Shown here one piece after another: positions 6,191-61,658 of a stretch of 64,000 nucleotides of DNA. A model generated the notes under the pieces. It made no database searches. It was not told the DNA's origin and worked only from the letters and a program-made list of their open reading frames with translations. The position numbers and the translations under genes were made by a program. Origin of the DNA: a virus; the IMG/VR virus record IMGVR_UViG_3300031669_000007, positions 1-64,000 of that record. One strand, written 5' to 3'. Each line of letters begins with the position of its first letter. The stretch's first letter is position 1.

Positions 6191-6424
6191 TTAATTATCA
6201 ACAGTTGTAGAGGTTCCTACCCACTTTAATGCGAATAAAGTAGCATCTTCTTCATTGCTGAAAGTATATTGTTGGTGCCCAAAAACTTCAGACATCTGCC
6301 ATACTCCGCACTCAAAGTTGCCTACTTCGTTTTTAGTCCAGGCAGGTCCATATTGTTGTTCGCACCAATTCCATATTTCAAGCTGCTTGGGATAATACCC
6401 TCTATTTAAGGTAACTTTTATCAT
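6191..6424 (-). CDS. Tail-family small protein (LFALKW)
   Basis: A 77-residue member of the window's largest paralogous family. Layout: N-terminal strand M-I-K-V-T-L, a helix with I-W-N-W-C-E, a middle Trp (GPAWTK), then the tail F-S-N-E-E-D-A-T-L-F-A-L-K-W-V-G. The family's common parts are the W-C-E helix and the final E-x-D-A-x-L-F-x-L-K/R-W. Last cistron of the 6.2-9.7 kb array. Function unknown. Confidence 0.75.
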   Translation of the reverse strand: MIKVTLNRGYYPKQLEIWNWCEQQYGPAWTKNEVGNFECGVWQMSEVFGHQQYTFSNEEDATLFALKWVGTSTTVDN

Positions 6425-6425
6425 G

Positions 6426-6686
6426 TTATTGTTCCGGGCAAATTAATAAAAGCATCGTATAGACCTCATCGGGAATTTCAACTGTCCTAATAAGTGTATC
6501 GTTTTCAATTCGTGTAATAATTATCCCATACTTTTCTCTTACTTCATCATAGAACTCTTTAGTAAAGTCGCTATAATTGTATTTGGTTTTCAGAGAAGTA
6601 AGTAGTCTGGCCATACGTTCTGCTCGAACTTGCGCCTCAAGTCTTTCTTGATGATTTCTATATTCTTCATTAAAATAAAATATCAT
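6426..6686 (-). CDS. Tail-family protein, DEVYTMLLL type
   Basis: Start set at 6686 (MIFYFNEEYRNHQE) with GGAAG upstream and an ATGA overlap with the 6683-6892 gene. Long charged helix, then F-Y-D-E-V-R-E-K-Y-G-I and the tail I-P-D-E-V-Y-T-M-L-L-L. It matches the protein at 57677-57940 (L-P-D-E-V-F-T-M-L-L-L-K-Y) far better than its neighbours, so this subfamily spans both arrays. Its end (ICPEQ) lacks the usual K/R-W/Y. Confidence 0.65.
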   Translation of the reverse strand: MIFYFNEEYRNHQERLEAQVRAERMARLLTSLKTKYNYSDFTKEFYDEVREKYGIIITRIENDTLIRTVEIPDEVYTMLLLICPEQ

Positions 6687-6892
6687 ATTTCTCTTCCTGA
6701 CCAAAGCAAAGAAAACATAACTGCATCTTTCTCGTGTCTAAATAAAAAGATTGACATCTTTAATGGTTTCTCCACGTAGGTTGGATTTACTTCCCAGTCG
6801 ATCCCCTCTTCGCCTATATTTTCTTCACACCAGTCACATCGAGGACTGGTCTCGGGGTATATTAACCTGGGAACAATGACTTTATATTTCAT
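6683..6892 (-). CDS. Tail-family small protein (MFSLLW)
   Basis: Start at 6892 (MKYKVIVPRLIYPET); the in-frame extension upstream reads through the preceding gene's end. Contains C-D-W-C-E-E-N-I-G and the tail F-R-H-E-K-D-A-V-M-F-S-L-L-W-S. Arg/Lys of the L-R-W motif is replaced by Leu. Confidence 0.7.
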   Translation of the reverse strand: MKYKVIVPRLIYPETSPRCDWCEENIGEEGIDWEVNPTYVEKPLKMSIFLFRHEKDAVMFSLLWSGREI

Positions 6893-7133
6893 GACCACTT
6901 TAACAAACAGAGAGTTATGTTTTTTTCGGCGCACCCTTTACAATTTGTATTGCGGGATAATCAATATCACCAGCAAAGTCTGCTCGGTAAAAGCCATCTA
7001 AGTTTACATACTTTTCAATATCACATTCTTTTGCCCACTTAAAGAATTCCTCTTTCTCTTTCTCAGTAGTAAAATCCTTGAGTTCAAGTCCAGTTTGTCC
7101 TTCACTTAAAGTAAGCGTGTTAATAATTTTCAT
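6889..7133 (-). pseudogene. Tail-family gene with tail out of frame (A7 run)
   Basis: From ATG at 7133 the frame stops at 6915 with I-V-K-G-A-P-K-K-T, lacking the family tail. Shifting by one base in the run of seven A gives K-N-I-T-L-C-L-L-K-W-S and a TGA at 6889-6891 that overlaps the next ATG, exactly the usual arrangement. The body has F-F-K-W-A-K-E-C-D where relatives have the W-C-E helix. It may be a -1 frameshift on the A7 run, a decayed gene, or a one-base homopolymer error. Confidence 0.65.
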
Positions 7134-7354
7134 GACCACCTCAACATAAAGAGCATAAGATCTTGTTCACTTGTAAAATCAATATATTCAGTTTTCTCAA
7201 TATTAATTGCTCGCCATTCTAATAATAGCTTAGAGATGATATCATTATCTACCATCTTATGCCCGAGACCCTCGTAGTAATCAACAAAGTTGTCCCACCA
7301 ACCATTGAACTCAAGACTTGCTCCACCATCCTCATATACAGAAATTCGTATCAT
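7130..7354 (-). CDS. Tail-family small protein (LFMLRWS)
   Basis: Start ATG at 7354 (MIRISVYEDGG), overlapping the upstream stop. Shares W-W-x-N-F-V-D-Y-Y near residue 22 and the tail F-T-S-E-Q-D-L-M-L-F-M-L-R-W-S with the next two genes; the three are recent tandem copies. The codons for L-R-W-S and stop (TTGAGGTGGTCATGA) also give the ribosome-binding site and start of the downstream gene. Confidence 0.75.
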   Translation of the reverse strand: MIRISVYEDGGASLEFNGWWDNFVDYYEGLGHKMVDNDIISKLLLEWRAINIEKTEYIDFTSEQDLMLFMLRWS

Positions 7355-7572
7355 GCCCACCTCAATAAAAACAGCGTGACCTCTTCTTCAGTGTTGAAAC
7401 CAATATAGGGACTGTTTTCGACGTTGATTATTCCATATTTCCCCAACGTCTCGGTCATGCCCTCATTTGTTACCATGTCAAACCCTTTTCCTCTATGGTA
7501 GTCAACGAAGTTAGTCCACCATCTATTAAACTGCCTAACACCAGTATTGTCACATACAGTCATCTTAATCAT
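7351..7572 (-). CDS. Tail-family small protein (LFLLRWA)
   Basis: Start ATG at 7572 (MIKMTVCDNTGV). Close relative of the flanking genes: R-W-W-T-N-F-V-D-Y-H and tail F-N-T-E-E-E-V-T-L-F-L-L-R-W-A. Ends TTGAGGTGGGCATGA, again joining the tail codons, a Shine-Dalgarno and the next ATG. Confidence 0.75.
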   Translation of the reverse strand: MIKMTVCDNTGVRQFNRWWTNFVDYHRGKGFDMVTNEGMTETLGKYGIINVENSPYIGFNTEEEVTLFLLRWA

Positions 7573-7790
7573 GACCACCTCAACACGAACAGTAAGTAAT
7601 CTTGCTCGGTTTTAAAACTAATGAATTCAGTTTCTTCAATGTTTGTTGCGTTCCAATCCTCTAATGCTTTGTCAAGTCGATCACCATCTAATAGAAAACT
7701 GCTTAGTTCTTCGTAGTGGGCAATAAAATTTAACCACCATCGATGATTGCTACCTATAGAATCGTAAGCAAATACAGATACCTTAATCAT
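7569..7790 (-). CDS. Tail-family small protein (LFVLRWS)
   Basis: A 73-residue protein, third of the W-W-x-N-F triplet (H-R-W-W-L-N-F-I-A-H-Y). Tail F-K-T-E-Q-D-Y-L-L-F-V-L-R-W-S. ATGA overlaps at its 3' end. Confidence 0.75.
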   Translation of the reverse strand: MIKVSVFAYDSIGSNHRWWLNFIAHYEELSSFLLDGDRLDKALEDWNATNIEETEFISFKTEQDYLLFVLRWS

Positions 7791-8050
7791 TTATTCCACC
7801 TCAACAAAAACAGCATAGCATCTTTTTCTTCTTTAAACATCCAAGTCAACGGAGTCACTGTAGACATTGTATTTAGGGATGTGGTTGTTGGATGCTTGTG
7901 GAATTCATAGACCACGTTTCTCTTATACCATACATCTCTCTCATAGCCAAATATTTCTTCGCACCATTCTTCGCAGGGTCGCCACTGTAGATTTATATCG
8001 GGCACGTTGTGATAAATCTCATACCACCCATTAACAAGTTCATGTTTCAT
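7787..8050 (-). CDS. Tail-family small protein (LFLLRWNK)
   Basis: An 87-residue protein with C-E-E-W-C-E-E-I-F-G, a central W-Y-K-R, and tail F-K-E-E-K-D-A-M-L-F-L-L-R-W-N-K. Its start overlaps the preceding gene by 11 bases. Its end reads TTGAGGTGGAATAAATGA. Confidence 0.75.
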   Translation of the reverse strand: MKHELVNGWYEIYHNVPDINLQWRPCEEWCEEIFGYERDVWYKRNVVYEFHKHPTTTSLNTMSTVTPLTWMFKEEKDAMLFLLRWNK

Positions 8051-8273
8051 TGTTATTGGGATTCACGTTTGTCCAGCGTAGTGAAAATATTACTGCATCT
8101 TCTTCTCTCCTAAACAGGTAGATGGAATTTCCCGGAGAAGAATATGTATCTATATCCCAATCATACTGTCGCCGACCAATACTTTTGGCGCACCAATCAA
8201 CTCTTACATTTACATCTATATTATCACGTAGATTTGATCGACGAAGTGTGGGCAATGTTATCTTATGTATCAT
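8040..8273 (-). CDS. Tail-family small protein (IFSLRW)
   Basis: A 77-residue protein: basic start (MIHKITLPTLRRSN), D-W-C-A-K-S-I-G, a Trp near the middle (YDWDI), tail F-R-R-E-E-D-A-V-I-F-S-L-R-W followed by TNVNPNNNET. Confidence 0.75.
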   Translation of the reverse strand: MIHKITLPTLRRSNLRDNIDVNVRVDWCAKSIGRRQYDWDIDTYSSPGNSIYLFRREEDAVIFSLRWTNVNPNNNET

Positions 8274-8485
8274 GAGAACTGTATAATAAACATCAAATAA
8301 TCTGCTTCGGTCGTAAACTCAAAATCAAGAACTAAATCTTTATAAGGTTTTTGAATAACTCTTACGATATAATCTCCTGGGTAGGTCGTATAGACAAAAG
8401 AACAGATTTCGTCTTCTTCGCTATGAGTGATAATAAAGTTGCCATATATTTCTGTTACTGCCTTCTGTATCTTATCTATTTGCAC
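8270..8485 (-). CDS. Tail-family protein, YPGDYIV type
   Basis: A GTG start at 8485 is supported by AGGA upstream. The 71-residue product has Y-P-G-D-Y-I-V-R-V and ends F-T-T-E-A-D-Y-L-M-F-I-I-Q-F-S. The same Y-P-G-D/N-Y-V/I-V block occurs at 59034-59255 and 60408-60611, so this subfamily is shared by two arrays 50 kb apart. Confidence 0.65.
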   Translation of the reverse strand: MQIDKIQKAVTEIYGNFIITHSEEDEICSFVYTTYPGDYIVRVIQKPYKDLVLDFEFTTEADYLMFIIQFS

Positions 8486-8486
8486 C

Positions 8487-8729
8487 TTAAAAATCCTCTA
8501 TCAAAGTATCCGGCCACTTCATCAACATGATTACTATTAACTTTTCATCAACCCACAGACTATCGCCGCGGTTCTTTGGTTCTATCCAAAGATCCCTGTC
8601 TTGAGTCGTAATCCAATCATACACTTCATTAGAGGCACTGATTAGTTGGAACATATATTCTGTTCCTACACGTTGCTTTGGATTCGTGTTGTTTTCTCTA
8701 ACCCAATGTTTTATTATGGCTATGACCAT
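8487..8729 (-). CDS. Tail-family divergent member (MLMKWPD)
   Basis: An 80-residue protein with V-Y-D-W-I-T-T-Q-D-R-D-L-W and tail D-E-K-L-I-V-I-M-L-M-K-W-P-D followed by TLIEDF. The extension past the Trp resembles the Y-P-E-S-I extension at 25517-25777. Confidence 0.6.
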   Translation of the reverse strand: MVIAIIKHWVRENNTNPKQRVGTEYMFQLISASNEVYDWITTQDRDLWIEPKNRGDSLWVDEKLIVIMLMKWPDTLIEDF

Positions 8730-8941
8730 TTCAATAGATACATCATATAATCAGATTCTGATGAAAGCCATACTTCTGGTCGACCACCCCAGTCATGTTT
8801 AATCTGCCAACCACCGTTGCATGATGCTCTAACCCAAGACATCGATTCTACATGATGATGAGTATTACAATCACATTTATATTTCGGATCAAATACGGAT
8901 ATGTTCGTTGTAGTCGCTGATTGTGTAAAGAAAGAAGTCAT
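8720..8941 (-). CDS. Tail-family small protein (MYLLKWS)
   Basis: A 73-residue protein with a His/Cys-rich N-terminal half (KCDCNTHHHVESMSW), a Gly/Trp-rich middle and tail L-S-S-E-S-D-Y-M-M-Y-L-L-K-W-S. AAGGTGG, encoding R-W of the preceding gene, lies seven bases before its ATG. Confidence 0.65.
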   Translation of the reverse strand: MTSFFTQSATTTNISVFDPKYKCDCNTHHHVESMSWVRASCNGGWQIKHDWGGRPEVWLSSESDYMMYLLKWS

Positions 8942-8942
8942 A

Positions 8943-9167
8943 CTATAACCACCTTAACGAAAACAACATTGCATCTTTCTTGCAGTTAAATGAATATAAT
9001 CTTCCAGGTAAGTCCTCGGACCACAGTAAATGACAATCCCCAAATGTTTTATCGCACCAATCAACTATTTCAATAGAGTTTTCTTTGCGTTCGCGAAATC
9101 TAATTTCGAAGCGAAGACTGCCACGACGTGTTTCCGCCCTCATCCTAGCTTTCTCTAGTGTTGACAT
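8943..9167 (-). CDS. Tail-family small protein (LFSLRWL)
   Basis: Start at 9167 (MSTLEKARMRAETRRG), overlapping the upstream TAA (TAATG). Very basic N-terminus, I-V-D-W-C-D-K-T-F-G, then L-L-W-S-E-D and tail F-N-C-K-K-D-A-M-L-F-S-L-R-W-L. Confidence 0.7.
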   Translation of the reverse strand: MSTLEKARMRAETRRGSLRFEIRFRERKENSIEIVDWCDKTFGDCHLLWSEDLPGRLYSFNCKKDAMLFSLRWL

Positions 9168-9427
9168 TAATGTGATCCCCACTTCAATAAGAACATTGAA
9201 GCATCTTCTTCGTTAAAAAATACAAAATATTCCTTCTTGTTTTCTCTTACGATAATGATACCCTGCGTAAATAGCCAATCCTCAAATTTCTTCATACTGC
9301 CATGATGGCGACTGCTCCCGCCTTGGAAGTAGAATCTTTTCTTCTCTTCTATTTCTAATCCCAGAATCACTTGATTGTGATATTTAAGAAGTTTCTGAAA
9401 ATATGGAAATGCGTGAATTTTTATCAT
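9167..9427 (-). CDS. Tail-family small protein (MFLLKWG)
   Basis: Start at 9427 (MIKIHAFPYFQK) with ATGA overlap. Lys/Gln-rich centre, a W near residue 58 (FEDWLFTQGI) and tail F-F-N-E-E-D-A-S-M-F-L-L-K-W-G-S-H. Confidence 0.7.
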   Translation of the reverse strand: MIKIHAFPYFQKLLKYHNQVILGLEIEEKKRFYFQGGSSRHHGSMKKFEDWLFTQGIIIVRENKKEYFVFFNEEDASMFLLKWGSH

Positions 9428-9732
9428 TGACACTTCCACTTCAAAAGAAAGTAAGAGATAAGAGACTCGTGTTTTTTACTAAGTTTTATCTCAAGAATCG
9501 AAAGATTCTTTTTGTTTAACCTATAATCCCAATCAATGCCACGAATACCGGCTATTTCCATTAGGTCATCGCGATACTGAATATATGACATCAAGTCATC
9601 ATCCGAATATAAAACACAAATAGTCTTTGTTCTGGTCGTTAGCCACCATATACGTTGTTTAAGAGAACCATAGTCAACTAAGTATTTCTTAGTTTCGTTG
9701 TAAAAAATTGATATAGTTGATAACTTAGGCAT
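9424..9732 (-). CDS. Tail-family long member (YFLLKW)
   Basis: A 102-residue protein, first gene of the array. It keeps a G-I-D-W-D-Y Trp and the tail K-H-E-S-L-I-S-Y-F-L-L-K-W-K-C-Q. It directly follows the RNase H gene and the promoter at 10440-10467, so the array is likely expressed early as one message. Confidence 0.6.
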   Translation of the reverse strand: MPKLSTISIFYNETKKYLVDYGSLKQRIWWLTTRTKTICVLYSDDDLMSYIQYRDDLMEIAGIRGIDWDYRLNKKNLSILEIKLSKKHESLISYFLLKWKCQ

Positions 9733-12005: not shown

Positions 12006-12182
12006 CTATGATGTGCCTTGCCAGCGTAACGTAAAGAGCAAGGCGTCGGCATCTATCTCAAAATTCATGTAATATGCTTTTCTATACCACCGACCCGCAC
12101 AGTGAAAATCACACCATACCTTATATTCATATAGACGTGTCGTCCAATCTCCGGCACCCCAATCTCCTATATCAACTATCAT
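12006..12182 (-). CDS. Isolated tail-family protein, 58 residues
   Basis: A 58-residue frame from ATG at 12182 (MIVDIGDWGAGDW) with V-W-C-D-F-H and tail F-E-I-D-A-D-A-L-L-F-T-L-R-W-Q followed by GTS. The tail leaves no doubt that it is a family member, stranded between the AAA ATPase and a homing-endonuclease scar. Confidence 0.7.
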   Translation of the reverse strand: MIVDIGDWGAGDWTTRLYEYKVWCDFHCAGRWYRKAYYMNFEIDADALLFTLRWQGTS

Positions 12183-22999: not shown

Positions 23000-23278
23000 T
23001 TATTGCCAGCGTAAACTGAACATCAGCATATCTTGCTCGTTCTCAAAGTAGTAAATTATGTCGCCCAACTCTGCACCATCAAATGTGCGGTCAACAATAA
23101 CTTTGTCTGTTTTCCAGTCATATCTGGTAGCAGGGGAATATTCTTCTGACGAGTGCTTCCCCGAACAGCATTCGTATTGCCATACCCTACGCGGGTCACG
23201 GTTAACGTGATCAGGGTGACGAGCAAGACAGATAAACCAGTCATATCGTAGAGTAGGACCAACGCGTCTTGCGATCAT
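23000..23278 (-). CDS. Tail-family small protein (MFSLRWQ)
   Basis: A 92-residue member away from the big arrays: basic start (MIARRVGPTLRYDW), a His/Cys/Arg-rich middle and tail F-E-N-E-Q-D-M-L-M-F-S-L-R-W-Q. Overlaps the upstream stop (ATGA). Confidence 0.7.
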   Translation of the reverse strand: MIARRVGPTLRYDWFICLARHPDHVNRDPRRVWQYECCSGKHSSEEYSPATRYDWKTDKVIVDRTFDGAELGDIIYYFENEQDMLMFSLRWQ

Positions 23279-23454
23279 TTCAGCAACTCATACAAGTATG
23301 CAGTTAATTCTTCATCAGCACCTTCGCGCTCACACCAATCTGCATACCACACAGGATCAAGTTCATCTGCCAACTCGCATTGTTCATACATTGGCATGAT
23401 AGAAAGGCGCTTTTTTACGTTGTAACAAAGCCGCTTAAACATTTCGTGTTCCAT
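23275..23454 (-). CDS. Small acidic protein, W-C-E type
   Basis: A 59-residue frame from ATG at 23454 (MEHEMFKRLCYNVKK). It has W-Y-A-D-W-C-E-R-E-G followed by D-E-E-L-T-A-Y-L-Y-E-L-L-K at the end. This resembles the W-C-E helix and tail of the neighbouring family, with L-L-K in place of L-R-W. ATGA overlap downstream. Confidence 0.55.
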   Translation of the reverse strand: MEHEMFKRLCYNVKKRLSIMPMYEQCELADELDPVWYADWCEREGADEELTAYLYELLK

Positions 23455-23490
23455 CTTACTGTTCCTTTGTGCCGGTCATTAGGGTTCTTT

Positions 23491-23868
23491 TCACTTCAAT
23501 CCCAACAGCTCGCGTTCTTCTGGGTCAAGTTTTGCAAGAGCAGCCTGACGCTTTTCATAACGACGCTGTGCTTCCAATCGATCATCGATTTTGCGGTTCA
23601 CTGCTCGCTCAAGCTCTTCGAGAGACCAATCACTTTGACCAGCAAGGCCGAATTCATCGTAGACATAATATTCTGTTTCTGCGTCGCGGTCGTAAAACGT
23701 GTATTTTCCATAGTCGACGTCGACTTTAGTCAACTCAAAACCTTCGTTCACTGCGGCTGCGACTGTTTCACGGAAACGCCGAGGGTATGTTTCCCGACGA
23801 GCCTGCATCAATGCTGCACGTTCTGCTTCTTCACGTGCGCGACGGTCTGCTGCTTTTTCTCGTGCCAT
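23491..23868 (-). CDS. Charged helical hypothetical protein
   Basis: Start at 23868 (MAREKAADRRAREEAE) following the stop of the 23870-24187 gene. The 125-residue product is Arg/Glu rich with a central V-D-V-D-Y-G-K-Y-T-F-Y-D-R-D-A strand region and a C-terminal helix (LEAQRRYEKRQAALAK). Confidence 0.55.
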   Translation of the reverse strand: MAREKAADRRAREEAERAALMQARRETYPRRFRETVAAAVNEGFELTKVDVDYGKYTFYDRDAETEYYVYDEFGLAGQSDWSLEELERAVNRKIDDRLEAQRRYEKRQAALAKLDPEERELLGLK

Positions 23869-23869
23869 T

Positions 23870-24187: not shown

Positions 24188-24218
24188 TTTGCGCTCTCTT
24201 TATTAACTGTATGATGCT

Positions 24219-24246
24219 ATTATACAGCATTTAACCGAAAAGTCAA
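24219..24246 (-). promoter_or_regulatory. Sigma70-like early promoter
   Basis: TTGACT, 16-base spacer, TATAAT on the minus strand. The block from -35 through the leader is almost identical to 3589-3616, 20 kb away, a dispersed repeat. Confidence 0.8.
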
Positions 24247-24280
24247 GCGATTTTTACCATCTATGGAATCAACAGTTTAG

Positions 24281-25515: not shown

Positions 25516-25516
25516 A

Positions 25517-53741: not shown

Positions 53742-54002
53742 ATGATACATGTCAAAACACTAGTCGAGGATTTCCCGCATCTCGTGCATAAAGCACGGAA
53801 AATCTGGTGCATCGAAACCTTTGGGAAACCATTTGGCGGTAAGCCTGCACCCGGAAAGAATTCTGAAACTAAGTGGGTAGACTGTCGCTGGTCACAGTAT
53901 AATACATATTTTCGGTTTAAGTATGAAGAAGATGCAATGATATTCATACTTAGGTGGGGCGGAGAAGTTAAGAATAAAGTTAAATGGAAAGTAAAAGAAT
54001 GA
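53742..54002 (+). CDS. Tail-family small protein on plus strand (IFILRWGG)
   Basis: An 86-residue protein (MIHVKTLVEDFPHLVH) with K-I-W-C-I-E-T-F-G, W-V-D-C-R-W, and tail F-K-Y-E-E-D-A-M-I-F-I-L-R-W-G-G followed by a basic extension. The only family member on the plus strand, under its own strong promoter. The reading frame is open further upstream but the promoter lies inside that extension, so 53742 is the start. Confidence 0.7.
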   Translation: MIHVKTLVEDFPHLVHKARKIWCIETFGKPFGGKPAPGKNSETKWVDCRWSQYNTYFRFKYEEDAMIFILRWGGEVKNKVKWKVKE

Positions 54003-55758: not shown

Positions 55759-55761
55759 TAT

Positions 55762-55769: not shown

Positions 55770-55801
55770 GCAAGTTTTTCTTCCGCACCTGATTCCGAAT
55801 T

Positions 55802-55814: not shown

Positions 55815-56192
55815 ATGGAAGAAAACGATATTAAACGTATTATGGCAGACAAGCCTTACCTGTCACTATTGACGTATGGCGGCAATGATTATTTGGGTAT
55901 TATTCAGAACATCGACGACACCATTACCACAATCTATGATTTTGGTTCTCTCAAAACAGAAGATCAGAAGATTGTATTCTTAGAGTTGGCTGAGATATGG
56001 TGGATGGAGAGTAATCGACTTGTCCCAATCAATGTATTCTTGCGCGTAGAATGGGCAATCTTCCGTCCTACACTAAAGACACTAAACTCTAAGGATGTTG
56101 ATGTTAAGCTAGGTCCTCATCTAAGTCTTAAAGAGATGGCTGCTAAGAAATCAAAACGTAGATCAATTACTCTTGTTCGTCGTATGCAGTAA
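55815..56192 (+). CDS. Conserved T4-like hypothetical protein
   Basis: A 125-residue plus-strand protein (MEENDIKRIMADKPYL). L-T-Y-G-G-N-D-Y-L-G-I-I-Q-N and E-I-W-W-M-E-S-N-R-L-V-P-I-N-V-F-L are blocks I recall from marine T4-like phages. Basic end (KKSKRRSITLVRRMQ). Late-type element immediately before the start. Role unknown. Confidence 0.6.
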   Translation: MEENDIKRIMADKPYLSLLTYGGNDYLGIIQNIDDTITTIYDFGSLKTEDQKIVFLELAEIWWMESNRLVPINVFLRVEWAIFRPTLKTLNSKDVDVKLGPHLSLKEMAAKKSKRRSITLVRRMQ

Positions 56193-56424
56193 ACGGCGAT
56201 CCATACTTAATAACTGCCAATGGATAGGTTTCATCAGTAAACTCTAATGAGTCGAGAGACTTATTAAACTTCCCTTTCCCCAAGTTTGCTTTACAATTCC
56301 ATTCGTTTTCTAACCAGCTTAGCCAGTCAGGTATATCACCGTCGTATTGAGCACGGTGTTGATCATTTATGATTTTCTTCCAATTATACGGATATGGATT
56401 AGGACCGCTAAACGATATTTTCAT
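56167..56424 (-). CDS. Tail-family protein, LAVIKYGSP type
   Basis: An 85-residue protein starting MKISFSGPNPYPYNW. W-L-S-W-L-E-N-E-W-N-C-K-A-N-L-G is the helix, and the end is F-T-D-E-T-Y-P-L-A-V-I-K-Y-G-S-P. Close tandem copy of the next gene. Confidence 0.7.
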   Translation of the reverse strand: MKISFSGPNPYPYNWKKIINDQHRAQYDGDIPDWLSWLENEWNCKANLGKGKFNKSLDSLEFTDETYPLAVIKYGSPFTAYDEQE

Positions 56425-56660
56425 AATGCAGGTGGTCCATACTTAAGAACTGCTAAGAGATAGTTATCATCCTCAAAGATTAGTGCAGCTATGCATTTAT
56501 CATCACCAAATTTCCCCATCTCTACTTTACATTTCCATTCGTTTTCTAACCAGTTTATCCACTCAACTAAATTACCGTAATACATTATGCTGTGTTGATC
56601 TGAGATAACCATAGCCCAGTTAGTTGTCTTTTCATAATTATCTTTAAACGATATTTTCAT
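56421..56660 (-). CDS. Tail-family protein, LAVLKYGPP type
   Basis: Start at 56660 (MKISFKDNYEKTTNW), overlapping the previous gene by 17 bases. W-I-N-W-L-E-N-E-W-K-C-K-V-E-M-G and end F-E-D-D-N-Y-L-L-A-V-L-K-Y-G-P-P. About half the residues match 56167-56424. Confidence 0.7.
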   Translation of the reverse strand: MKISFKDNYEKTTNWAMVISDQHSIMYYGNLVEWINWLENEWKCKVEMGKFGDDKCIAALIFEDDNYLLAVLKYGPPAL

Positions 56661-56916
56661 TGTTTGCATACCTCAATAATAAAAGTGTGTAATGTTCATC
56701 ATCTACTTCTATCCTCGTAATTTTTTCATCTCTGATAGTGATTACAATTCCTAGCGTATTATATGCCCACTCTATAAATATTCTCTCGCCTACAGATGAC
56801 TCAAGGTCTTCTTTTGGTAGAGAATTTCCAATGGATTCCATAAAGTCATCCCATACACCAGCTATAGGCGGCCTGTCAGGAACATTGTCTAATGTATCAA
56901 TAGAAAAGAGTATCAT
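56644..56916 (-). CDS. Tail-family protein, LLLLRYAN type
   Basis: A 90-residue protein: F-I-E-W-A-Y-N-T-L-G-I-V-I-T-I helix-strand and tail V-D-D-E-H-Y-T-L-L-L-L-R-Y-A-N. The final Trp of L-R-W is Tyr throughout this 56-58 kb subgroup. Confidence 0.7.
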   Translation of the reverse strand: MILFSIDTLDNVPDRPPIAGVWDDFMESIGNSLPKEDLESSVGERIFIEWAYNTLGIVITIRDEKITRIEVDDEHYTLLLLRYANNENIV

Positions 56917-57191
56917 GCGGCATACTGTAATAAAAACATTGTTAATTCTTCATCATCTACTGTTACGGCATAGATAGCGTTTTCTTCTTTATCTTTGCCA
57001 ATCTTTCTTCTTTTATAGATGACCTTGCTTGATGGTATTCTTTCAGTCAATGACTGAACATATTCTTCTGTTGTTACGTCTGTTCCATCGTCGAATACTT
57101 CTCTAAAATACCTGGCCGCTGCTCTCTTAAAGGACTCGGCGTTGTGGTCGAGATATTTTCCATCTACAGCTTCAAAACTAATTGTTATCAT
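56913..57191 (-). CDS. Tail-family protein, MFLLQYAA type
   Basis: A 92-residue protein (MITISFEAVDGKYLDH) with a helical middle and tail V-D-D-E-E-L-T-M-F-L-L-Q-Y-A-A. ATGA overlap on both sides. Confidence 0.65.
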   Translation of the reverse strand: MITISFEAVDGKYLDHNAESFKRAAARYFREVFDDGTDVTTEEYVQSLTERIPSSKVIYKRRKIGKDKEENAIYAVTVDDEELTMFLLQYAA

Positions 57192-57472
57192 GGCGGAAAC
57201 CTTATTAAGAGCATAGTATAGGCAGAGTCCTCTACATCTATTCCGGCAATATGCCCAGGAAAAAGTCCGCCCGGATCGTTAAGAACTGTTATCTGCCAGG
57301 TATCTTTAAGCCAGGCACGAAACTCTTCGTATTCATTGGCATGACCAATTCCCTTCCACGGGGATTCTTCTCTAAGTGCTCGAAGTATCTTAGCCCAATG
57401 AATAGGCGAAGTGCCTCTAATTGGAAAATATCCGGCATAATCAACGATGCGATCAGTGAAAGATACTATCAT
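57188..57472 (-). CDS. Tail-family protein, MLLIRFPP type
   Basis: Start at 57472 (MIVSFTDRIVDYAGYF) by ATGA overlap; the long upstream extension is a shadow of the 57469-57684 gene. F-R-A-W-L-K-D-T-W-Q-I helix, end V-E-D-S-A-Y-T-M-L-L-I-R-F-P-P. Confidence 0.65.
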   Translation of the reverse strand: MIVSFTDRIVDYAGYFPIRGTSPIHWAKILRALREESPWKGIGHANEYEEFRAWLKDTWQITVLNDPGGLFPGHIAGIDVEDSAYTMLLIRFPP

Positions 57473-57684
57473 TCTCCGAACCTCAACATAAAAAACATTG
57501 CGTCCTTCTCCTCTTTGAAAGCATAAATGTGATACTTTAAGAAAACTACCGTCCAATCTTCGTTTTTCTTCCCCATACAAGTATTAAGCCAAGCTAAACG
57601 ATTACAGTAGTCTTGATAGGTATGCTTCTTATTAGCTCTAATAATATAGGGAAACCTGGCGTTATAGGGTAATTTTTCAATCAT
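57469..57684 (-). CDS. Tail-family protein, MFFMLRFGE type
   Basis: A 71-residue protein: C-N-R-L-A-W-L-N-T-C-M-G-K-K-N-E-D-W and tail F-K-E-E-K-D-A-M-F-F-M-L-R-F-G-E. Its end TTGAGGTTCGGAGAATGA provides GGAG to the next gene. Confidence 0.7.
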   Translation of the reverse strand: MIEKLPYNARFPYIIRANKKHTYQDYCNRLAWLNTCMGKKNEDWTVVFLKYHIYAFKEEKDAMFFMLRFGE

Positions 57685-57940
57685 ATCCGTATTTTAAGAG
57701 TAGCATGGTAAAAACTTCGTCGGGCAAATCAATATATTCAAGGTGTCTAACCATTGTATATTTTTCGGAAAACATAGCATCTATGCCGTGTTCTCCTCTG
57801 ACATAATTGTAGAAATCATCATCAAAGAAGCCAAACCCGGCATCATTTCTTAAATTAATCAAGATCTCTGACATCTTCCGACGAAGAGCATACTCTTTTT
57901 CACCGGGTGCAGGAAGGTGGTTATTGTATATTATTCTCAT
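57677..57940 (-). CDS. Tail-family protein, DEVFTMLLLKY type
   Basis: An 87-residue protein: M-R-I-I-Y-N-N-H start, long charged helix, F-Y-N-Y-V-R-G-E-H-G-I and L-P-D-E-V-F-T-M-L-L-L-K-Y. Its nearest relative in the window is 6426-6686, 51 kb away. Confidence 0.65.
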   Translation of the reverse strand: MRIIYNNHLPAPGEKEYALRRKMSEILINLRNDAGFGFFDDDFYNYVRGEHGIDAMFSEKYTMVRHLEYIDLPDEVFTMLLLKYGYD

Positions 57941-58172
57941 TCAAATATTTAAGTAACAAAAATGTATATTCTTCATCATTGACCTCTAATCCTATAATGT
58001 TCGAATTGATATCATCATTTTTAAATGTTAAATTGATTGTCCATTTTTTGTTAAGCATTGATATAAAGCCCTCTTTATCAATTTGATCGCTTTTACTGGT
58101 CACTTTATACTCTTCCGCAAGTCCGCGCAATACAGCAAAACAGGGGTGACGGTTAGTTGGTTTTATTTTCAT
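57921..58172 (-). CDS. Tail-family protein, FLLLKYLN type
   Basis: An 83-residue protein: helical N-terminus, W-T-I-N-L-T-F strand and tail V-N-D-E-E-Y-T-F-L-L-L-K-Y-L-N. Starts inside the last codons of the DnaE-like gene (20-base overlap). Confidence 0.65.
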   Translation of the reverse strand: MKIKPTNRHPCFAVLRGLAEEYKVTSKSDQIDKEGFISMLNKKWTINLTFKNDDINSNIIGLEVNDEEYTFLLLKYLNENNIQ

Positions 58173-58785
58173 TCTTAAATTCCCACAACGAGTTTTTCTC
58201 TTGTTCTGCTATTAAATTCATATGGACCACAACAAGGTGAGCATATCCAACAGCATGTGCTTTCTTGAAGGTGTATCCATCGTCTGTTTTATCCCATATT
58301 GTTTTTGCAATCTCTGCCCAACTCTTTCCTTGCAAGTGTTTCTTTCCTGGACGGATCAATGCTAGGAACATAGCCATGCGTGGTATTGAATTGATTGGTT
58401 CCGGCAGCTTGCTTATCGTTTCGTGATAATTGCCAATGTGTATTAACTGCTCGCAAAAGTCTTTCTCAAGCAATCGTGTCCACGGCGGATCAGTAAGCAT
58501 CAGTTTCAACAAGTGTGCCTCTGATTGAACTTTTTCATATACTGATACATTGAGTAGGTCTACTTTAAAATACCCGCGTTCTTCCGCTGCCTTATAGTCA
58601 ATTGTTGCCAAGTTATTTACATCGTGCGGTATGTCTGTAAAATATACACCGGTCGCATGTTTACTAAGAGCTGCATCTGTTCTTATCATGCTCGCGTTGA
58701 TATGCTTGAGATGAGCCAAAGCAGCATCTCTGCTGCCAAAGTCTATGTCGATGTCACCTTTAAATTTTTTAATTTCTTCGCTCAT
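58153..58785 (-). CDS. Miniature DnaE-like (C-family polymerase) protein
   Basis: A 210-residue protein whose segments line up in order with bacterial Pol III alpha: G-D-I-D-I-D-F-x-x-R (the P-D-x-D-x-D-F metal Asp pair), H-A-T-G-V-Y-F, Y-K-A-A-E-E-R-G-Y-F-K-V-D-L-L-N (third Asp, K-x-D-F-L-G-L), A-M-F-L-A-L-I-R-P-G-K, and F-K-K-A-H-A-V-G-Y-A (F-N-K-S-H-A-A-A-Y). It keeps the palm acids but has lost most of the fingers, PHP, beta-binding and tau-binding parts; about one sixth of DnaE length. Whether it polymerises DNA is unknown. Confidence 0.7.
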   Translation of the reverse strand: MSEEIKKFKGDIDIDFGSRDAALAHLKHINASMIRTDAALSKHATGVYFTDIPHDVNNLATIDYKAAEERGYFKVDLLNVSVYEKVQSEAHLLKLMLTDPPWTRLLEKDFCEQLIHIGNYHETISKLPEPINSIPRMAMFLALIRPGKKHLQGKSWAEIAKTIWDKTDDGYTFKKAHAVGYAHLVVVHMNLIAEQEKNSLWEFKNENKTN

Positions 58786-59037
58786 GCTGTAATAAACTCC
58801 AACGGACGTGGTTCTATTCTTATTTCTACGGGAAACCTCGGTAAACTCTCGTCTAACTCTTCGTCACAGTATATACCGTCAGCTACAATGTTATCACCTA
58901 AGAAATAAACAAACTTCTCTATCGACGGCCGCGATGCTCCTGAGTCAAATATAATAAAGTATATACGGGTCAGGATTCTTCATCGCTGCTAAAATCTGCT
59001 TTGAAAATCTTGCCGTTACGTTGGTTACTCCATTCAT
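58782..59037 (-). pseudogene. Gene with +1 frame break at ATT-TGA-C
   Basis: From ATG at 59037 (ATGA overlap with the upstream gene) 30 codons run to TGA at 58945-58947. The next frame is open from before that stop to TGA at 58782-58784, which overlaps the DnaE-like ATG, but has no start codon. A +1 shift at ATT-TGA-C gives an 84-residue protein (...Y-I-L-Y-Y-I / D-S-G-A-S-R-P-S). The site resembles the CTT-TGA-C of the prfB frameshift, without the upstream Shine-Dalgarno. A decayed gene or a one-base error is equally possible. Confidence 0.55.
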
Positions 59038-59255
59038 TGCTGATACCTTAGAATAAACATTGTTTCGTCTTCTGGCTTATCAAATACTAACTTTGCTTTA
59101 AATGCCATTCTATGAAAATCGTAGTATTCTTGTACGACATAATTCCCAGGATAATTTTTTTGCATTTGTTCTGCCACATATAGTATTGTATCCTCTTTGC
59201 CAGGATTGAATGTTTTCTCTGAGTAGATCTTATCTAAATATCTGTTATAGTTCAT
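59034..59255 (-). CDS. Tail-family protein, YPGNYVV type (MFILRYQQ)
   Basis: A 73-residue protein (MNYNRYLDKIYSEKTF): Y-P-G-N-Y-V-V-Q-E-Y and end K-P-E-D-E-T-M-F-I-L-R-Y-Q-Q. Same subfamily as 8270-8485 and 60408-60611. Confidence 0.7.
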   Translation of the reverse strand: MNYNRYLDKIYSEKTFNPGKEDTILYVAEQMQKNYPGNYVVQEYYDFHRMAFKAKLVFDKPEDETMFILRYQQ

Positions 59256-59274
59256 GCTTTATTCTCAATGACGA

Positions 59275-59484
59275 TTATCTTCCCCACCGCAGTGAGAACA
59301 ACGTCGCATCTATATCGTTAAAAAATCTAATGCCTGATCTTCCTGTCCCATCGTTTGCTTCCCCTATAGTCCAACGCTGTTCATCTGGAAGCGGAGGATT
59401 AGGCATGTTTTCCTCTAACCACAAGCCTATATCTATCTCGGACTTACCCTTTGTTGCCGAGAAGTAAAATTCTAAATCAACCAT
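59275..59484 (-). CDS. Tail-family small protein (LFSLRWGR)
   Basis: Start at 59484 (MVDLEFYFSATKGKSE), TAATG overlap. G-L-W-L-E-E-N-M, R-W-T-I-G-E and tail F-N-D-I-D-A-T-L-F-S-L-R-W-G-R. Confidence 0.75.
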   Translation of the reverse strand: MVDLEFYFSATKGKSEIDIGLWLEENMPNPPLPDEQRWTIGEANDGTGRSGIRFFNDIDATLFSLRWGR

Positions 59485-59717
59485 TATGCCCACTTCAATG
59501 CGAACAATATCGCATCCTTCTCGTTGTCGAAGCACCACACTACTTCTCCTTCTTTGACACCTGCGTATGTAATCATACTGCTATCGTCATCATCAAGACA
59601 AGTATTTTCTTCGCACCACTTTGCCATCTCTTCCATTTTTGCATTTCGAGACTTTCCCCAAATTGAGTCTAATATAGTTGATACTCTGTGGTCACCAAAC
59701 AACGAATCTTTCTTCAT
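59484..59717 (-). CDS. Tail-family small protein (LFALKWA)
   Basis: A 77-residue protein: M-A-K-W-C-E-E-N-T-C, E-V-V-W and tail F-D-N-E-K-D-A-I-L-F-A-L-K-W-A. GGAG before its ATG is encoded by the W-S codons that end the preceding gene. Confidence 0.75.
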   Translation of the reverse strand: MKKDSLFGDHRVSTILDSIWGKSRNAKMEEMAKWCEENTCLDDDDSSMITYAGVKEGEVVWCFDNEKDAILFALKWA

Positions 59718-59718
59718 G

Positions 59719-59940
59719 CTAACTCCACTTCAATAAAAACAAGGTAAACTGTTCTTCATCCATATATGCAGTCCACAGGGTTGATCCTTTGTATATTTCT
59801 ACGGTTAGACCAAATTTTCTATCGAGTAATCTCTTAATTTCTTCTATGCTTATTAACGCAGTAGAAAACTTGTTTGCGTTCATCTCAGATCTAAAGCAAT
59901 CATAAAACTTTGGATAATCCTGGAAATCAAACTGTATCAT
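59719..59940 (-). CDS. Tail-family small protein (LFLLKWS)
   Basis: Start at 59940 (MIQFDFQDYPKFYD). L-D-R-K-F-G-L-T-V helix-strand, L-W-T-A-Y and tail M-D-E-E-Q-F-T-L-F-L-L-K-W-S. AAGGTGG upstream encodes L-R-W of the preceding gene. Confidence 0.75.
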   Translation of the reverse strand: MIQFDFQDYPKFYDCFRSEMNANKFSTALISIEEIKRLLDRKFGLTVEIYKGSTLWTAYMDEEQFTLFLLKWS

Positions 59941-60167
59941 TTCCACCTTAATAAGAAAAGCATCAAGTCTTGTTCATTAACAAAATAATATGTATCACCA
60001 TTTACTATATACCAATCTGACTCTTTAAGATTGTCTTTCAACCAATCATATCTATTTTCGAAAAGATCGCTGTTCGTTTTTCCATATCTATTTTCGAAAA
60101 GATCGCTGTTCGTTTTTCCATGCAGCCTTGTCTTAAAGGGCCAAATCTTTTTATTCAATTCTCTCAT
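59937..60167 (-). CDS. Tail-family small protein with internal 12-residue repeat
   Basis: Start at 60167 (MRELNKKIWPFKTRL). Contains the exact tandem G-K-T-N-S-D-L-F-E-N-R-Y twice, then Y-D-W-L-K-D-N-L-K-E-S-D-W and tail V-N-E-Q-D-L-M-L-F-L-L-R-W-K. The repeat is a recent 36-bp in-frame duplication. Confidence 0.75.
   Translation of the reverse strand: MRELNKKIWPFKTRLHGKTNSDLFENRYGKTNSDLFENRYDWLKDNLKESDWYIVNGDTYYFVNEQDLMLFLLRWK
60047..60118. repeat. Tandem 36-bp direct repeat, two exact copies
   Basis: Two identical 36-base units (60047-60082 and 60083-60118) inside a tail-family gene. The length is a multiple of three and keeps the frame. Confidence 0.9.
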
Positions 60168-60406
60168 AGCCAACGCAATGTAAACATTGTAGCATGAATT
60201 GGGTCACGAAAGTAGAAGATCATGCCGTCTCTATACCACATTTTTTCACCGAAAGTCTCCGTGCAATAGGGTTCATATTTGAATCCCTCTGACATAAATG
60301 CTCTTGTTGTCATCTCAACTCGAACCCAAAAGATTTCTTTCCACAATAGATGCAACGGCATACTTGTTATTGTTGTTAATTTATCGAACCAAGTCTCTTT
60401 TCTCAT
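60164..60406 (-). CDS. Tail-family small protein (MFTLRWL)
   Basis: An 80-residue protein: basic N-terminus (MRKETWFDKLTTITS), Y-C-T-E-T-F-G-E-K-M-W-Y and tail F-R-D-P-I-H-A-T-M-F-T-L-R-W-L. Confidence 0.7.
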   Translation of the reverse strand: MRKETWFDKLTTITSMPLHLLWKEIFWVRVEMTTRAFMSEGFKYEPYCTETFGEKMWYRDGMIFYFRDPIHATMFTLRWL

Positions 60407-60407
60407 G

Positions 60408-60611
60408 TCAGCTACACTGTAAGATAAACAATGTTAGATCTTCTTCTGTATTAAATATTATCGAAAATACCAAGTCTTCTGCGACTTCAACCACATAGTT
60501 TCCTGGATATTGAGATTTGATGTAACTTTCAACTTTTTCTTGTAGTCTTGTATCTATGGGTTCTCCTCGAAATCGAGTAGAAACGTCTTTATATAAATTA
60601 TCTAATATCAT
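60408..60611 (-). CDS. Tail-family protein, YPGNYVV type (LFILQCS)
   Basis: Start at 60611 (MILDNLYKDVSTRFRG) because it overlaps the TGA that ends the preceding gene once its frame is restored. Y-P-G-N-Y-V-V-E-V and end F-N-T-E-E-D-L-T-L-F-I-L-Q-C-S, with Cys in place of the final Trp. Confidence 0.7.
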   Translation of the reverse strand: MILDNLYKDVSTRFRGEPIDTRLQEKVESYIKSQYPGNYVVEVAEDLVFSIIFNTEEDLTLFILQCS

Positions 60612-60807
60612 TGCCATCTCAACCTAAAAGCAATGCGTCGGGTTCGTATTTGAACCAAAAAAGAACAGAGGTTTGGAACGTGATTGGGTTTGTGACTCCT
60701 GCAGTTTTAAACCAATTATCCTCGCCTACTCCGTGATTTAACCACTCAACTATTTTTTCTCTGTTTTCCGTAACGCAGTCGGATGACAGTTGAACCTTAT
60801 ATTCCAT
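60608..60807 (-). pseudogene. Tail-family gene with tail out of frame (T4 run)
   Basis: From ATG at 60807 (MEYKVQLSSDCVTENR) the frame has I-V-E-W-L-N-H-G-V-G, N-W-F-K and reaches Y-E-P-D-A-L-L-L-G then stops at 60619. A -1 shift in CTTTTA gives D-A-L-L-F-R-L-R-W-Q and a TGA at 60608-60610 that overlaps the next ATG. One missing T explains everything. Decay, a sequencing error or -1 slippage cannot be told apart here. Confidence 0.7.
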
Positions 60808-61018
60808 TGTTACCCATCCACCGTAACGCGAAAATAGTTGCGTCCTCTGACTGACTAAACCAGAACCGTGTTCGACCAACTGAGTATGATCCATCGCTCT
60901 CATATTCCTCGCACCATCTCTGCATTTTACCAAACTCTTCGGGCATCAAGTGTTCAGCTATAGTCACTCTATACCAAGATCCTATCTGTTCCATATTTAA
61001 TGCGCCAGAATAGTTCAT
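60797..61018 (-). CDS. Tail-family small protein (IFALRWMG)
   Basis: A 73-residue protein (MNYSGALNMEQIGSWY): M-Q-R-W-C-E-E-Y-E, R-F-W-F-S-Q and tail S-E-D-A-T-I-F-A-L-R-W-M-G. Overlaps neighbours at both ends. Confidence 0.75.
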   Translation of the reverse strand: MNYSGALNMEQIGSWYRVTIAEHLMPEEFGKMQRWCEEYESDGSYSVGRTRFWFSQSEDATIFALRWMGNNGI

Positions 61019-61245
61019 CTGCTGTGCCTTAATAAGAATAAAGTAGCATCTTCGTCATTTTGAAAATATACGCTAGAATAGCTAGATGTGTATTCAAGAT
61101 TGCCTTGATATTTTATATTGAACCAAGAAATCACAAATGAATATACCTCGGCGTTAGAAAAATCTTTACCCGCAACAATATCACATTCTCGACTGAATTC
61201 ATTTATAATTTTGTTAAGATCAAAGTTAGTAATTTTTGTCCCCAT
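61015..61245 (-). CDS. Tail-family small protein (LFLLRHSR)
   Basis: Start at 61245 (MGTKITNFDLNKIINE), just after the stop of the 61247-61414 gene; the longer upstream frame is a shadow of that gene. Tail F-Q-N-D-E-D-A-T-L-F-L-L-R-H-S-R, with His for the final Trp. Confidence 0.7.
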   Translation of the reverse strand: MGTKITNFDLNKIINEFSRECDIVAGKDFSNAEVYSFVISWFNIKYQGNLEYTSSYSSVYFQNDEDATLFLLRHSR

Positions 61246-61246
61246 C

Positions 61247-61414
61247 TTATGACCACCGTAATAAAAATAAAGTCGCGCCTTGTTCACTCTCAAAATACCA
61301 ATCTTTACCACAAGCAATAAATGTATCTCTCCCGAAGTTTTTTATTGCCCATTGATATGCTGTATGCCAGGATGTATTATCCCACAATGACAAACCAGAA
61401 ACAACGTGTATCAT
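61247..61414 (-). CDS. Shortest tail-family protein, 55 residues (LFLLRWS)
   Basis: A 55-residue protein from ATG at 61414 (MIHVVSGLSLWDNTSW): A-Y-Q-W-A-I-K-N-F-G-R-D, D-W-Y and tail F-E-S-E-Q-G-A-T-L-F-L-L-R-W-S. It begins M-I-H-V like the plus-strand copy at 53742. Confidence 0.7.
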   Translation of the reverse strand: MIHVVSGLSLWDNTSWHTAYQWAIKNFGRDTFIACGKDWYFESEQGATLFLLRWS

Positions 61415-61415
61415 A

Positions 61416-61658
61416 CTAACTCCATTTCAGTAAGAACATAACAAGATCTGAGTCAGTTGCAAATTCCAACGATACTGTTTCTATCCAGGATGTACCGATT
61501 CCTTCATGCAGCACTCTATTTACCTTTACACTGTTTTCTTTTTCCATATATTTAATGTGGTCGTCTGGCACAAGGTGATAATACTGATGTCCGCCCTCAT
61601 TTCTATAAGCGTTTCGAAACGGAGTAGATATCTTTTCGATGGGGATTACTATGCTCAT
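61416..61658 (-). CDS. Tail-family small protein (MFLLKWS)
   Basis: An 80-residue protein (MSIVIPIEKISTPFRN), first of the array: H-I-K-Y-M-E-K-E-N, S-W-I-E-T-V and tail F-A-T-D-S-D-L-V-M-F-L-L-K-W-S. Its ATG overlaps the zinc-finger gene stop. Confidence 0.7.
   Translation of the reverse strand: MSIVIPIEKISTPFRNAYRNEGGHQYYHLVPDDHIKYMEKENSVKVNRVLHEGIGTSWIETVSLEFATDSDLVMFLLKWS

What the first reader, a model, noticed from the sequence alone, without database searches (positions are those of the whole stretch)
6191..61658. About 42 tiny paralogues sharing one C-terminal tail, in three arrays and single copies
Genes of 55-102 residues at 6191-9732 (15), 12006-12182 (1), 23000-25777 (5), 53742-54002 (1, plus strand) and 56167-61658 (20) end in acidic-x-D/E-x-x-x-L/M-F/L-x-L-K/R-W/Y/F (for example E-E-D-A-M-L-F-L-L-R-W). 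Many also share a W-C-E-E-x-x-G helix and a mid-protein Trp, while the N-terminal halves are highly variable. A conserved end with a variable front suggests a shared docking helix carrying different recognition parts, for example anti-defence or host-takeover proteins binding a common partner. No function is known to me.
Basis: partly seen in the sequence, partly recalled or inferred. Interest (0 to 1): 0.88.

Follow-up and report, generated by a model that had tools for sequence, protein, structure and literature searches.

The report
Phage mini-gene arrays with double-duty tails
Some large bacterial viruses carry tandem rows of tiny, fast-changing relatives of one small protein, and the conserved end of each protein is often written in codons that also look like the landing site for the ribosome on the next gene, so each gene seems to carry the on-switch for its neighbour.

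Summary
Of 44 candidate small ORFs in the window, 30 match one profile (E<0.01); 8 form a divergent branch linked only by iterated search, not firmly; 6 are unsupported. Scans of 70-84 members gave only isolated marginal hits in Pfam, PHROGs, NCBIfam and PADLOC. Phage contigs yielded 617 nonredundant members in 74 loci, 47 with five or more; bacterial genomes yielded one locus. Three of 15 phage records searched have members: Phosso 34, Atu_ph07 4-5, PA5oct 3. AlphaFold predicts a small beta-alpha-beta-beta-alpha domain whose last helix is the tail, which argues against a loose docking helix. New point: the tail L-R-W-x-stop is mostly written (T/C)TG-AGG-TGG-NNA-TGA, a Shine-Dalgarno just before the next ATG, which overlaps the stop. 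The Arg codon is AGG in 222/273 RW tails when the next ORF overlaps, 15/58 when not (p=9e-16), 8% elsewhere in the members. Synonymous recoding halves the predicted anti-SD binding. So the tail looks double-coded: fold plus ribosome site for the next cassette. Members evolve faster than neighbours and alleles are exchanged. A host-directed binder repertoire is the likeliest function, but that is inferred.

The parts
6191..9732 (-). Array A: 15 small ORFs; 11 significant members, 6426 a branch-II member; 6915, 8487 and 9424 unsupported
   Evidence: profile scores; junctions
6191..6424 (-). member, WCE type
   Evidence: E 1.4e-14
6426..6704 (-). branch-II member (tail YTMLLLICPEQ)
   Evidence: main profile E 20; iterated search
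6683..6934 (-). member
   Evidence: E 2.7e-14
7130..7360 (-). member; overlap ATG is internal, at 7352-7354
   Evidence: E 3.3e-9; junction
7351..7578 (-). member; overlap ATG is internal, at 7570-7572
   Evidence: E 8.5e-7; junction
7569..7790 (-). member
   Evidence: E 4.5e-9
7787..8050 (-). member
   Evidence: E 3.1e-9
8040..8273 (-). member
   Evidence: E 2.2e-13
8270..8485 (-). member
   Evidence: E 1.6e-5
8720..8941 (-). member
   Evidence: E 5.7e-8
8943..9182 (-). member
   Evidence: E 3.2e-12
9167..9439 (-). member
   Evidence: E 5e-8
7136..7141 (-). AGGTGG in the RW codons of 7130-7360; putative RBS of the next ORF (6915-7133, itself not a supported member; ATGA overlap)
7357..7362 (-). 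AGGTGG in the RW codons of 7351-7578; putative RBS of 7130-7354
7575..7580 (-). AGGTGG in the RW codons of 7569-7790; putative RBS of 7351-7572
7796..7801 (-). AGGTGG in the RW codons of 7787-8050; putative RBS of 7569-7790
8949..8954 (-). AGGTGG in the RW codons of 8943-9182; putative RBS of 8720-8941
59943..59948 (-). AGGTGG in the RW codons of 59937-60173; putative RBS of 59719-59940
12006..12182 (-). single member
   Evidence: E 1.5e-6
23000..25777 (-). Array B: four significant members (23000, 24580, 24786, 25043); 23275, 25252 and 25517 unsupported
23000..23278 (-). member
   Evidence: E 8e-8
24580..24807 (-). member
   Evidence: E 5.4e-11
24786..25064 (-). member
   Evidence: E 9.3e-12
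25043..25279 (-). member used for the AlphaFold model (b-a-b-b-a, pLDDT 82.8)
   Evidence: E 6.3e-15
53742..54002 (+). single member, plus strand (inside ORF 53448-54002)
   Evidence: E 8.4e-13 for the ORF
56167..61658 (-). Array C: 20 small ORFs; 13 significant, 7 branch-II
56167..56424 (-). branch-II member
56421..56669 (-). branch-II member
56644..56916 (-). branch-II member
56913..57191 (-). branch-II member
57188..57580 (-). branch-II member
57469..57684 (-). member
   Evidence: E 1.3e-9
57677..57940 (-). branch-II member by seed; not among the last-round hits; AlphaFold b-a-a-b-b-a, pLDDT 90.5
57921..58172 (-). branch-II member by seed; not among the last-round hits
59034..59255 (-). member
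   Evidence: E 1.5e-5
59275..59538 (-). member
   Evidence: E 3.2e-11
59484..59717 (-). member
   Evidence: E 1.3e-11
59719..59946 (-). member (weak); overlap ATG is internal, at 59938-59940
   Evidence: E 5.2e-5; junction
59937..60173 (-). member
   Evidence: E 2.9e-12
60164..60406 (-). member
   Evidence: E 6e-11
60408..60617 (-). member (weak)
   Evidence: E 0.0012
60619..60933 (-). member (weak), tail degenerate
   Evidence: E 0.0031
60797..61018 (-). member
   Evidence: E 1e-10
61015..61317 (-). member
   Evidence: E 2e-8
61247..61414 (-). member
   Evidence: E 9.1e-12
61416..61658 (-). member
   Evidence: E 1.7e-6

Best explanation
A phage family of small one-domain proteins (median 79 aa, predicted beta-alpha-beta-beta-alpha) has been amplified into tandem, co-directional, overlapping gene arrays in large phages. 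The conserved C-terminal tail is the last helix of the fold. Its last codons, typically (T/C)TG-AGG-TGG-NNA-TGA, also form the Shine-Dalgarno and overlapping start codon of the next gene, so many members carry the ribosome-binding site of their neighbour. Inferred step: this lets duplicated or swapped-in members be translated at once, and the fast-evolving copies are a repertoire of binders aimed at host (or rival) proteins, expressed together during infection. The shared end is scaffold plus RBS, not a docking arm.
For: Homology and spread: 20 loci from one member, 73 from an alignment, 617 nonredundant members; 74 loci with members, 47 with >=5, 26 with >=10, and only the window mixes strands (27 minus, 1 plus) among loci with >=5. 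Fold. Double coding: 436 of 608 members overlap the next ORF against 266 of 956 non-family genes; in 345 of the 436 the next ORF is itself family-like. AGG for the tail Arg: 222/273 overlapped against 15/58 not (p 9e-16); with one member per 45% cluster 133/167 against 11/38 (p 5e-9). Leu TTG/CTG 237/260 against 29/56; R over K 273:55 against 58:38. In the rest of the members AGG is 8% of Arg codons and TTG/CTG 29% of Leu codons. Predicted anti-SD energy -8.6 against -4.2 kcal/mol after synonymous recoding (n=332, p 1.7e-44); non-family ATGA overlaps -4.5 against -3.5 recoded (n=169, p 1.7e-5); same place in non-overlapped members -4.7 (n=169). RW/KW stands in the array position in 3 of 33 ORFs of three cultured phages. 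Real, fast-evolving genes: omega 0.12-0.45 in members against 0.08-0.15 in neighbours of >=120 aa, higher in 7 of 7 informative pairs; an eighth pair was identical. Turnover: 18 against 22 members in L097/L101 with 15 orthologous, and alleles of 41-49% identity beside near-identical ones.
Against: No function, partner or expression was measured. The families matched by neighbouring ORFs are mostly ordinary accessory genes (RNA ligase, Clp protease, AAA ATPase, metallophosphatase); lists for flanking ORFs were capped at 25 of 58 and 25 of 68 families. Trp at -2 is still present in 103 of 169 non-overlapped members, so the tail is not only an RBS. Among 12 clusters holding both overlapped and non-overlapped RW members, the non-overlapped ones lack AGG in 6 but use it throughout in the other 6. 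For KW tails the Leu-codon bias is not significant (p 0.08). Within the window alone the recoding test is weak (12 ATGA pairs, p 0.052), and many window tails use AAG/AAA-TGG or have no SD. Breakpoints cluster at member stops (55% within 30 nt against 14% expected, 94 breakpoints), but also at ordinary gene ends outside arrays (34% against 7.5%, 147 breakpoints), so tail-specific recombination is not shown. The anti-SD sequence is recalled (E. coli 16S) and the hosts are unknown.
Confidence: 0.55

Rival explanations
1. One reading: the tail is a shared docking helix for one common partner, and the fronts are different recognition parts.
For: Strong conservation of F, L and W in the last helix; W kept at -2 in 103 of 169 non-overlapped members.
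Against: The tail is the last helix of a predicted small domain. The R and the codons of L-R are explained by the next gene's RBS. The residues after F-x-L vary in cultured-phage members.
Confidence: 0.15
2. Gene regulators or nucleic-acid binders (ferredoxin- or KH-like small domains), each copy acting on a different promoter or RNA.
For: Weak resemblance of the model to KH domains and other small alpha/beta domains; precedent of a Zn-ribbon expansion in phage G (PMC7824862, passage).
Against: Best Foldseek PDB match E 0.17 and VIA Z at most 6.5, which may be only a common arrangement; pI spread 4.4-9.7 (5th-95th percentile) without a basic bias.
Confidence: 0.15
3. Largely selfish or neutral amplification: once a gene brought its own downstream RBS, tandem copies accumulated with little individual function.
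For: Strong built-in SD at the junctions; many singletons, 196 of 279 clusters.
Against: Purifying selection (omega 0.12-0.45) and relatives kept across contig groups (33 clusters).
Confidence: 0.12

Closest known systems
[quoted passage not shown] 2017, PMC5646251, passages read); Zn-ribbon expansion of ~35 copies in phage G (PMC7824862, passage read; that it is the same array is my guess)
   Same: Large phages, tandem duplicates of one gene family.
   Different: 121Q has no match to this family. The largest paralogue group that I could link in 121Q has 15 ORFs at 117-131 kb, many of 270-430 aa (RCC1-like repeats by recall), so I may not have found the array of over 30. Here the copies are highly diverged proteins of about 79 aa with a double-coded tail.
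Translationally coupled overlapping gene pairs, ATGA/TGATG with SD inside the upstream gene (Huber et al. 2019, PMC6728339, passages read)
   Same: 4-nt or 1-nt overlaps, SD inside the 3' end of the upstream gene.
   Different: There it is a property of gene pairs; here one family's conserved protein motif supplies the SD at a fixed place for successive paralogues.
Homologues in Sinorhizobium phage Phosso, Agrobacterium phage Atu_ph07 and Pseudomonas phage PA5oct (those in the annotated stretches are called hypothetical protein)
   Same: Same profile and F-x-L ending.
   Different: Mostly scattered, not in long arrays; often longer in Phosso; RW/KW in the array position in only 3 of 33.

Membership tests
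Any Pfam / PHROGs / NCBIfam / PADLOC family | members reach a family model | tested here: not met
   Per-member scans: PHROGs 1 of 70 (E 0.0092) and 1 of 84 (E 0.005); Pfam 12 families with 1 of 70 each, best E 0.0096; PADLOC three families with 1 of 84 each, best 0.0013; NCBIfam 1 of 84, E 0.0024
Phage G-type Zn-ribbon expansion | conserved Cys pairs binding Zn | tested here: not met
   No conserved Cys pair in the consensus of A1 or A4; Cys 1.8%. No phage G sequence was compared
121Q tandem-array family | sequence homology to 121Q proteins | tested here: not met
   No profile match anywhere in 121Q; best ORF E 0.44
Translationally coupled overlapping genes | stop/start overlap with SD in the upstream gene's 3' end | tested here: met
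   436 of 608 overlap; codon and SD-energy tests
Translationally coupled overlapping genes | measured dependence of downstream translation on the upstream gene | not testable with these tools
   needs reporter assays
KH / ferredoxin-like domain superfamilies | same fold by structure comparison | tested here: inconclusive
   best VIA Z 6.5 (5uyy_A, rmsd 3.3, 74 aligned), many tied unrelated rows; branch-II model Z at most 3.4
Anti-defence (e.g. anti-CRISPR-like) proteins | inhibits a defence system | not testable with these tools
   no assay; no anti-defence neighbour recognised among 70 of 162 interspersed ORFs

The most novel reading that the evidence does not exclude
A coding-level cassette system: a gene family whose own conserved C-terminal codons are the ribosome-binding and start site of whatever follows, so that any duplicated or imported member is expressed automatically. 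This would let large phages grow and reshuffle polycistronic repertoires of dozens of diversified host-binding proteins without promoters or attachment sites.
Probability: 0.45. Interest if true: 0.85.

Novelty: new variant of a known kind. Interest (0 to 1): 0.7.

Why it matters
It names a large protein family not covered by the four family libraries scanned, gives an unexpected reason for a conserved protein tail (it is also, very likely, the next gene's translation signal), and offers a simple route by which phages could expand arsenals of small effectors. It is directly testable by synonymous recoding and in a cultured phage (Phosso, 34 profile matches). It also warns that conserved C-terminal motifs in gene arrays can be nucleotide signals.

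Tried and rejected
Tail-driven recombination: breakpoints do sit at member ends, but breakpoints outside arrays also sit at gene ends, so dropped. DNA mimicry: pI runs from 4.4 to 9.7 (5th-95th percentile), so no. Fusion to a peptidyl-tRNA hydrolase (BFVD hit in phage CcrBL9, E 0.23): the profile finds nothing in CcrBL9. Fold naming: no PDB match at E<=0.001; profile against PDB sequences best E 0.19; branch-II model VIA Z at most 3.4. Same fold for branch II by shared viral-model hits: the best hits of the two models are not shared, so only the order of elements agrees. Guilt by association: 70 of 162 interspersed and 58 of 198 flanking ORFs (longest first, up to 700 aa, near-duplicates dropped). 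Pfam and PADLOC were run on the interspersed set, Pfam and PHROGs on the flanking set. PADLOC gave six models in 1-2 of 70 (mad8, dCTPase, LmuB, three PDC-S), which I take for cross-hits of ordinary enzymes. Search for relatives of branch-II member 57677-57940 in viral contigs: none. Single-protein tblastn in cultured phages: chance-level hits except Phosso to Atu_ph07 (E 2e-8). Literature: ten full-text searches listed no description of this family; I saw listings, and passages of four papers; the library lacks most subscription papers, including the PA5oct omics paper that I asked for by a recalled DOI. Bacterial genomes: 1 relative from 18 pattern matches, a 6.4-kb MAG contig packed with members, probably phage DNA. 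The pattern (DAxLFALRW) is narrow, so absence elsewhere is weak.


Full report
OBSERVATION. The window belongs to a 92,630-bp virus record. Its primase/helicase region matches 12 of 50,697 phage records, best Pseudomonas jumbo phage PA5oct and relatives (about 65% identity over about a quarter of the query). It has ClpS-, Hsp20- and ribonucleotide-reductase-like ORFs (my reading of the translations) of the kinds annotated in PA5oct. A strict tail regex hits 20 of 421 ORFs against 0.10 expected after shuffling. A cross-phage profile scores 30 of 44 candidate ORFs at E<0.01, while the best other ORF is 0.96. Eight ORFs ending like YTMLLLKY are not reached by that profile, and hhalign of the two alignments is negative. 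A search seeded with the eight first reaches four ORFs in arrays of other phages (one already in the family), then grows over four rounds to 702 hits, 642 of them already in the family. Profile drift cannot be excluded, and two of the eight seeds are missing from the last round's window hits. Six candidates have no support.

FAMILY. One member found 20 viral loci. An alignment of 12 members found 73 viral loci, from 118 pattern stretches, and 1 locus from 18 stretches in 84,980 bacterial/archaeal genomes. Iterated HMMER over 7,245 nonredundant ORFs gave 617 members (nonredundant by exact sequence only; near-duplicate contigs, the window and nine ORFs of cultured phages are included). Median length is 79 aa and the median distance from the end of the match to the C-terminus is 1 aa. 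Of 74 loci with members, 47 have >=5 and 26 have >=10; only the window mixes strands among loci with >=5. Some records are over 200 kb: one of 518,643 bp with 21 matches and one of 320,767 bp with 35. Among 15 records of the phage collection searched by profile (13 isolates, 2 labelled uncultured), 3 have matches: Phosso 34, Atu_ph07 4 or 5 by profile, PA5oct 3. Trp makes up 5.2% of family residues against 1.9% in other genes of the loci. Library scans of 70 or 84 members gave only isolated marginal hits.

STRUCTURE. AlphaFold2 with 70 sequences gives beta-alpha-beta-beta-alpha for 25043-25279 (pLDDT 82.8, pTM 0.72). With 10 sequences it gives beta-alpha-alpha-beta-beta-alpha for branch-II member 57677-57940 (pLDDT 90.5, pTM 0.79). 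Both end strand-strand-helix, the helix being the tail. Foldseek against viral models: for the main model 17 of the top 18 rows are uncultured Caudovirales proteins (65-142 aa, probability 0.99-1.00), but none reaches E<=0.001. The branch-II model has two such hits, not shared with the main model's best. Solved structures give no match at E<=0.001 and only generic alpha/beta arrangements. I had no coordinates, so burial of the conserved residues was not measured.

EVOLUTION. In seven informative pairs of related contigs (an eighth was identical), 41 orthologous member pairs have omega 0.12-0.45 per contig pair against 0.08-0.15 for neighbouring genes of >=120 aa, higher in all seven; two of the pairs are from the same contig group. 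The last 16 residues are 86% identical between orthologues against 81% elsewhere, so the tail stands out between paralogues much more than between orthologues. L097 and L101 have 18 and 22 members with 15 orthologous; in L097/L101 and L058/L072 equivalent positions can hold alleles only 49% and 41% identical. Single-linkage clustering gives 279 clusters, 196 of them singletons, with 33 shared by >=3 contig groups.

THE DOUBLE-CODED TAIL. Gene junctions in the arrays often read ...(T/C)TG AGG TGG NNA TGA with the next ATG inside the stop. Of 608 members, 436 overlap the next ORF of >=40 codons (332 ATGA, 48 GTGA/TTGA, 56 one-base) against 266 of 956 non-family genes. In 345 of the 436 the next ORF is family-like, in 49 another ORF of >=80 codons, in 42 a shorter one. 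Among tails with R-W before the last residue, Arg is AGG in 222/273 overlapped and 15/58 non-overlapped members, against 8% of Arg codons in the rest of the members. The preceding Leu is TTG/CTG in 237/260 against 29/56, against 29% in the rest. Arg replaces Lys more often when overlapped (273:55 against 58:38). Taking one member per 45% cluster keeps the result (133/167 against 11/38). In 12 clusters holding both classes, the non-overlapped members lack AGG in 6 and have it throughout in 6. Predicted pairing with the 16S tail (sequence recalled) averages -8.6 kcal/mol in 332 ATGA junctions and -4.2 after synonymous recoding; it is -4.5 (recoded -3.5) in 169 non-family junctions and -4.7 in 169 non-overlapped members. 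In the window alone the effect is in the same direction but not significant (12 junctions, p 0.052). In stretches of the three cultured phages only 3 of 33 ORFs have RW/KW in that position, although 14 of 33 overlap the next ORF. W remains at -2 in 103 of 169 non-overlapped members, so W serves the protein too. Shown: codon choice that tracks overlap and favours an SD at this place. Inferred: that it works in translation, and that it helped the arrays to grow.

FUNCTION. No catalytic signature or known fold emerges. Fast evolution, allele swapping, copy gain and near-absence from the bacterial genome collection fit proteins that bind varying host or rival targets. I give 0.55 to the whole statement; the family and the codon signal alone I hold at about 0.9. 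Neighbour genes neither support nor exclude anti-defence (the family lists for flanking ORFs were capped).

KNOWN AND NEW. [quoted passage not shown] cited by the review PMC13282480, passages read), and phage G has a Zn-ribbon expansion of about 35 copies (PMC7824862, passages read). In 121Q I could link at most 15 paralogous ORFs, of another family, and nothing there matches this one. Overlap-coupled translation with an SD in the upstream gene is well known (PMC6728339, passages read). I found no report of this family, or of a family-wide protein motif that doubles as the next paralogue's RBS; the ten searches of a CC-licensed library are listed under Tried and rejected.

Noticed in passing
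window 34303-50605, minus strand: About ten ORFs begin with a similar short peptide of the type MKINEII-E (e.g. 43773-44549, 44546-45307, 45308-46432, 47439-48197, 48194-48862, 49622-50605). It recalls the T4 capsid-targeting N-terminus (recalled, not tested).
   Followed up: no
record G000 66586-69386 (L002; just beyond the window): A helicase-like gene appears split: one ORF ends with an intein-like N part, another begins with an intein-like C part, with a third ORF between them. It looks like a split-intein 'fractured gene' (by eye; label recalled).
   Followed up: no
window 12703-13455 (+), 14838-15602, 29546-30193, 37518-38120, 43162-43716, 46419-47174, 55294-55788: Several ORFs that look like free-standing GIY-YIG- or HNH-type endonucleases (by eye).
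   Followed up: no
record G000 85006-86076 (L003): Four consecutive ~90-aa ORFs that look like paralogues of an unrelated kind ('LPEGTIIVLKE'), another tiny array (by eye).
   Followed up: no
E. coli phage 121Q 169-177 kb (stretches L145, L146): Two further sets of small paralogues (6 and 5 ORFs) unrelated to this family.
   Followed up: no
family ORFs beginning MVM, MGM or EVVM, e.g. window 7130-7360, 7351-7578: The leading residues are the translated Shine-Dalgarno; the true start is probably the internal ATG, so mechanical start calls are a few codons too long.
   Followed up: partly
L122 (DLXM01000070.1): A 6.4-kb contig binned as a Bacteroidetes genome holds 15 family members and is probably phage DNA.
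   Followed up: partly
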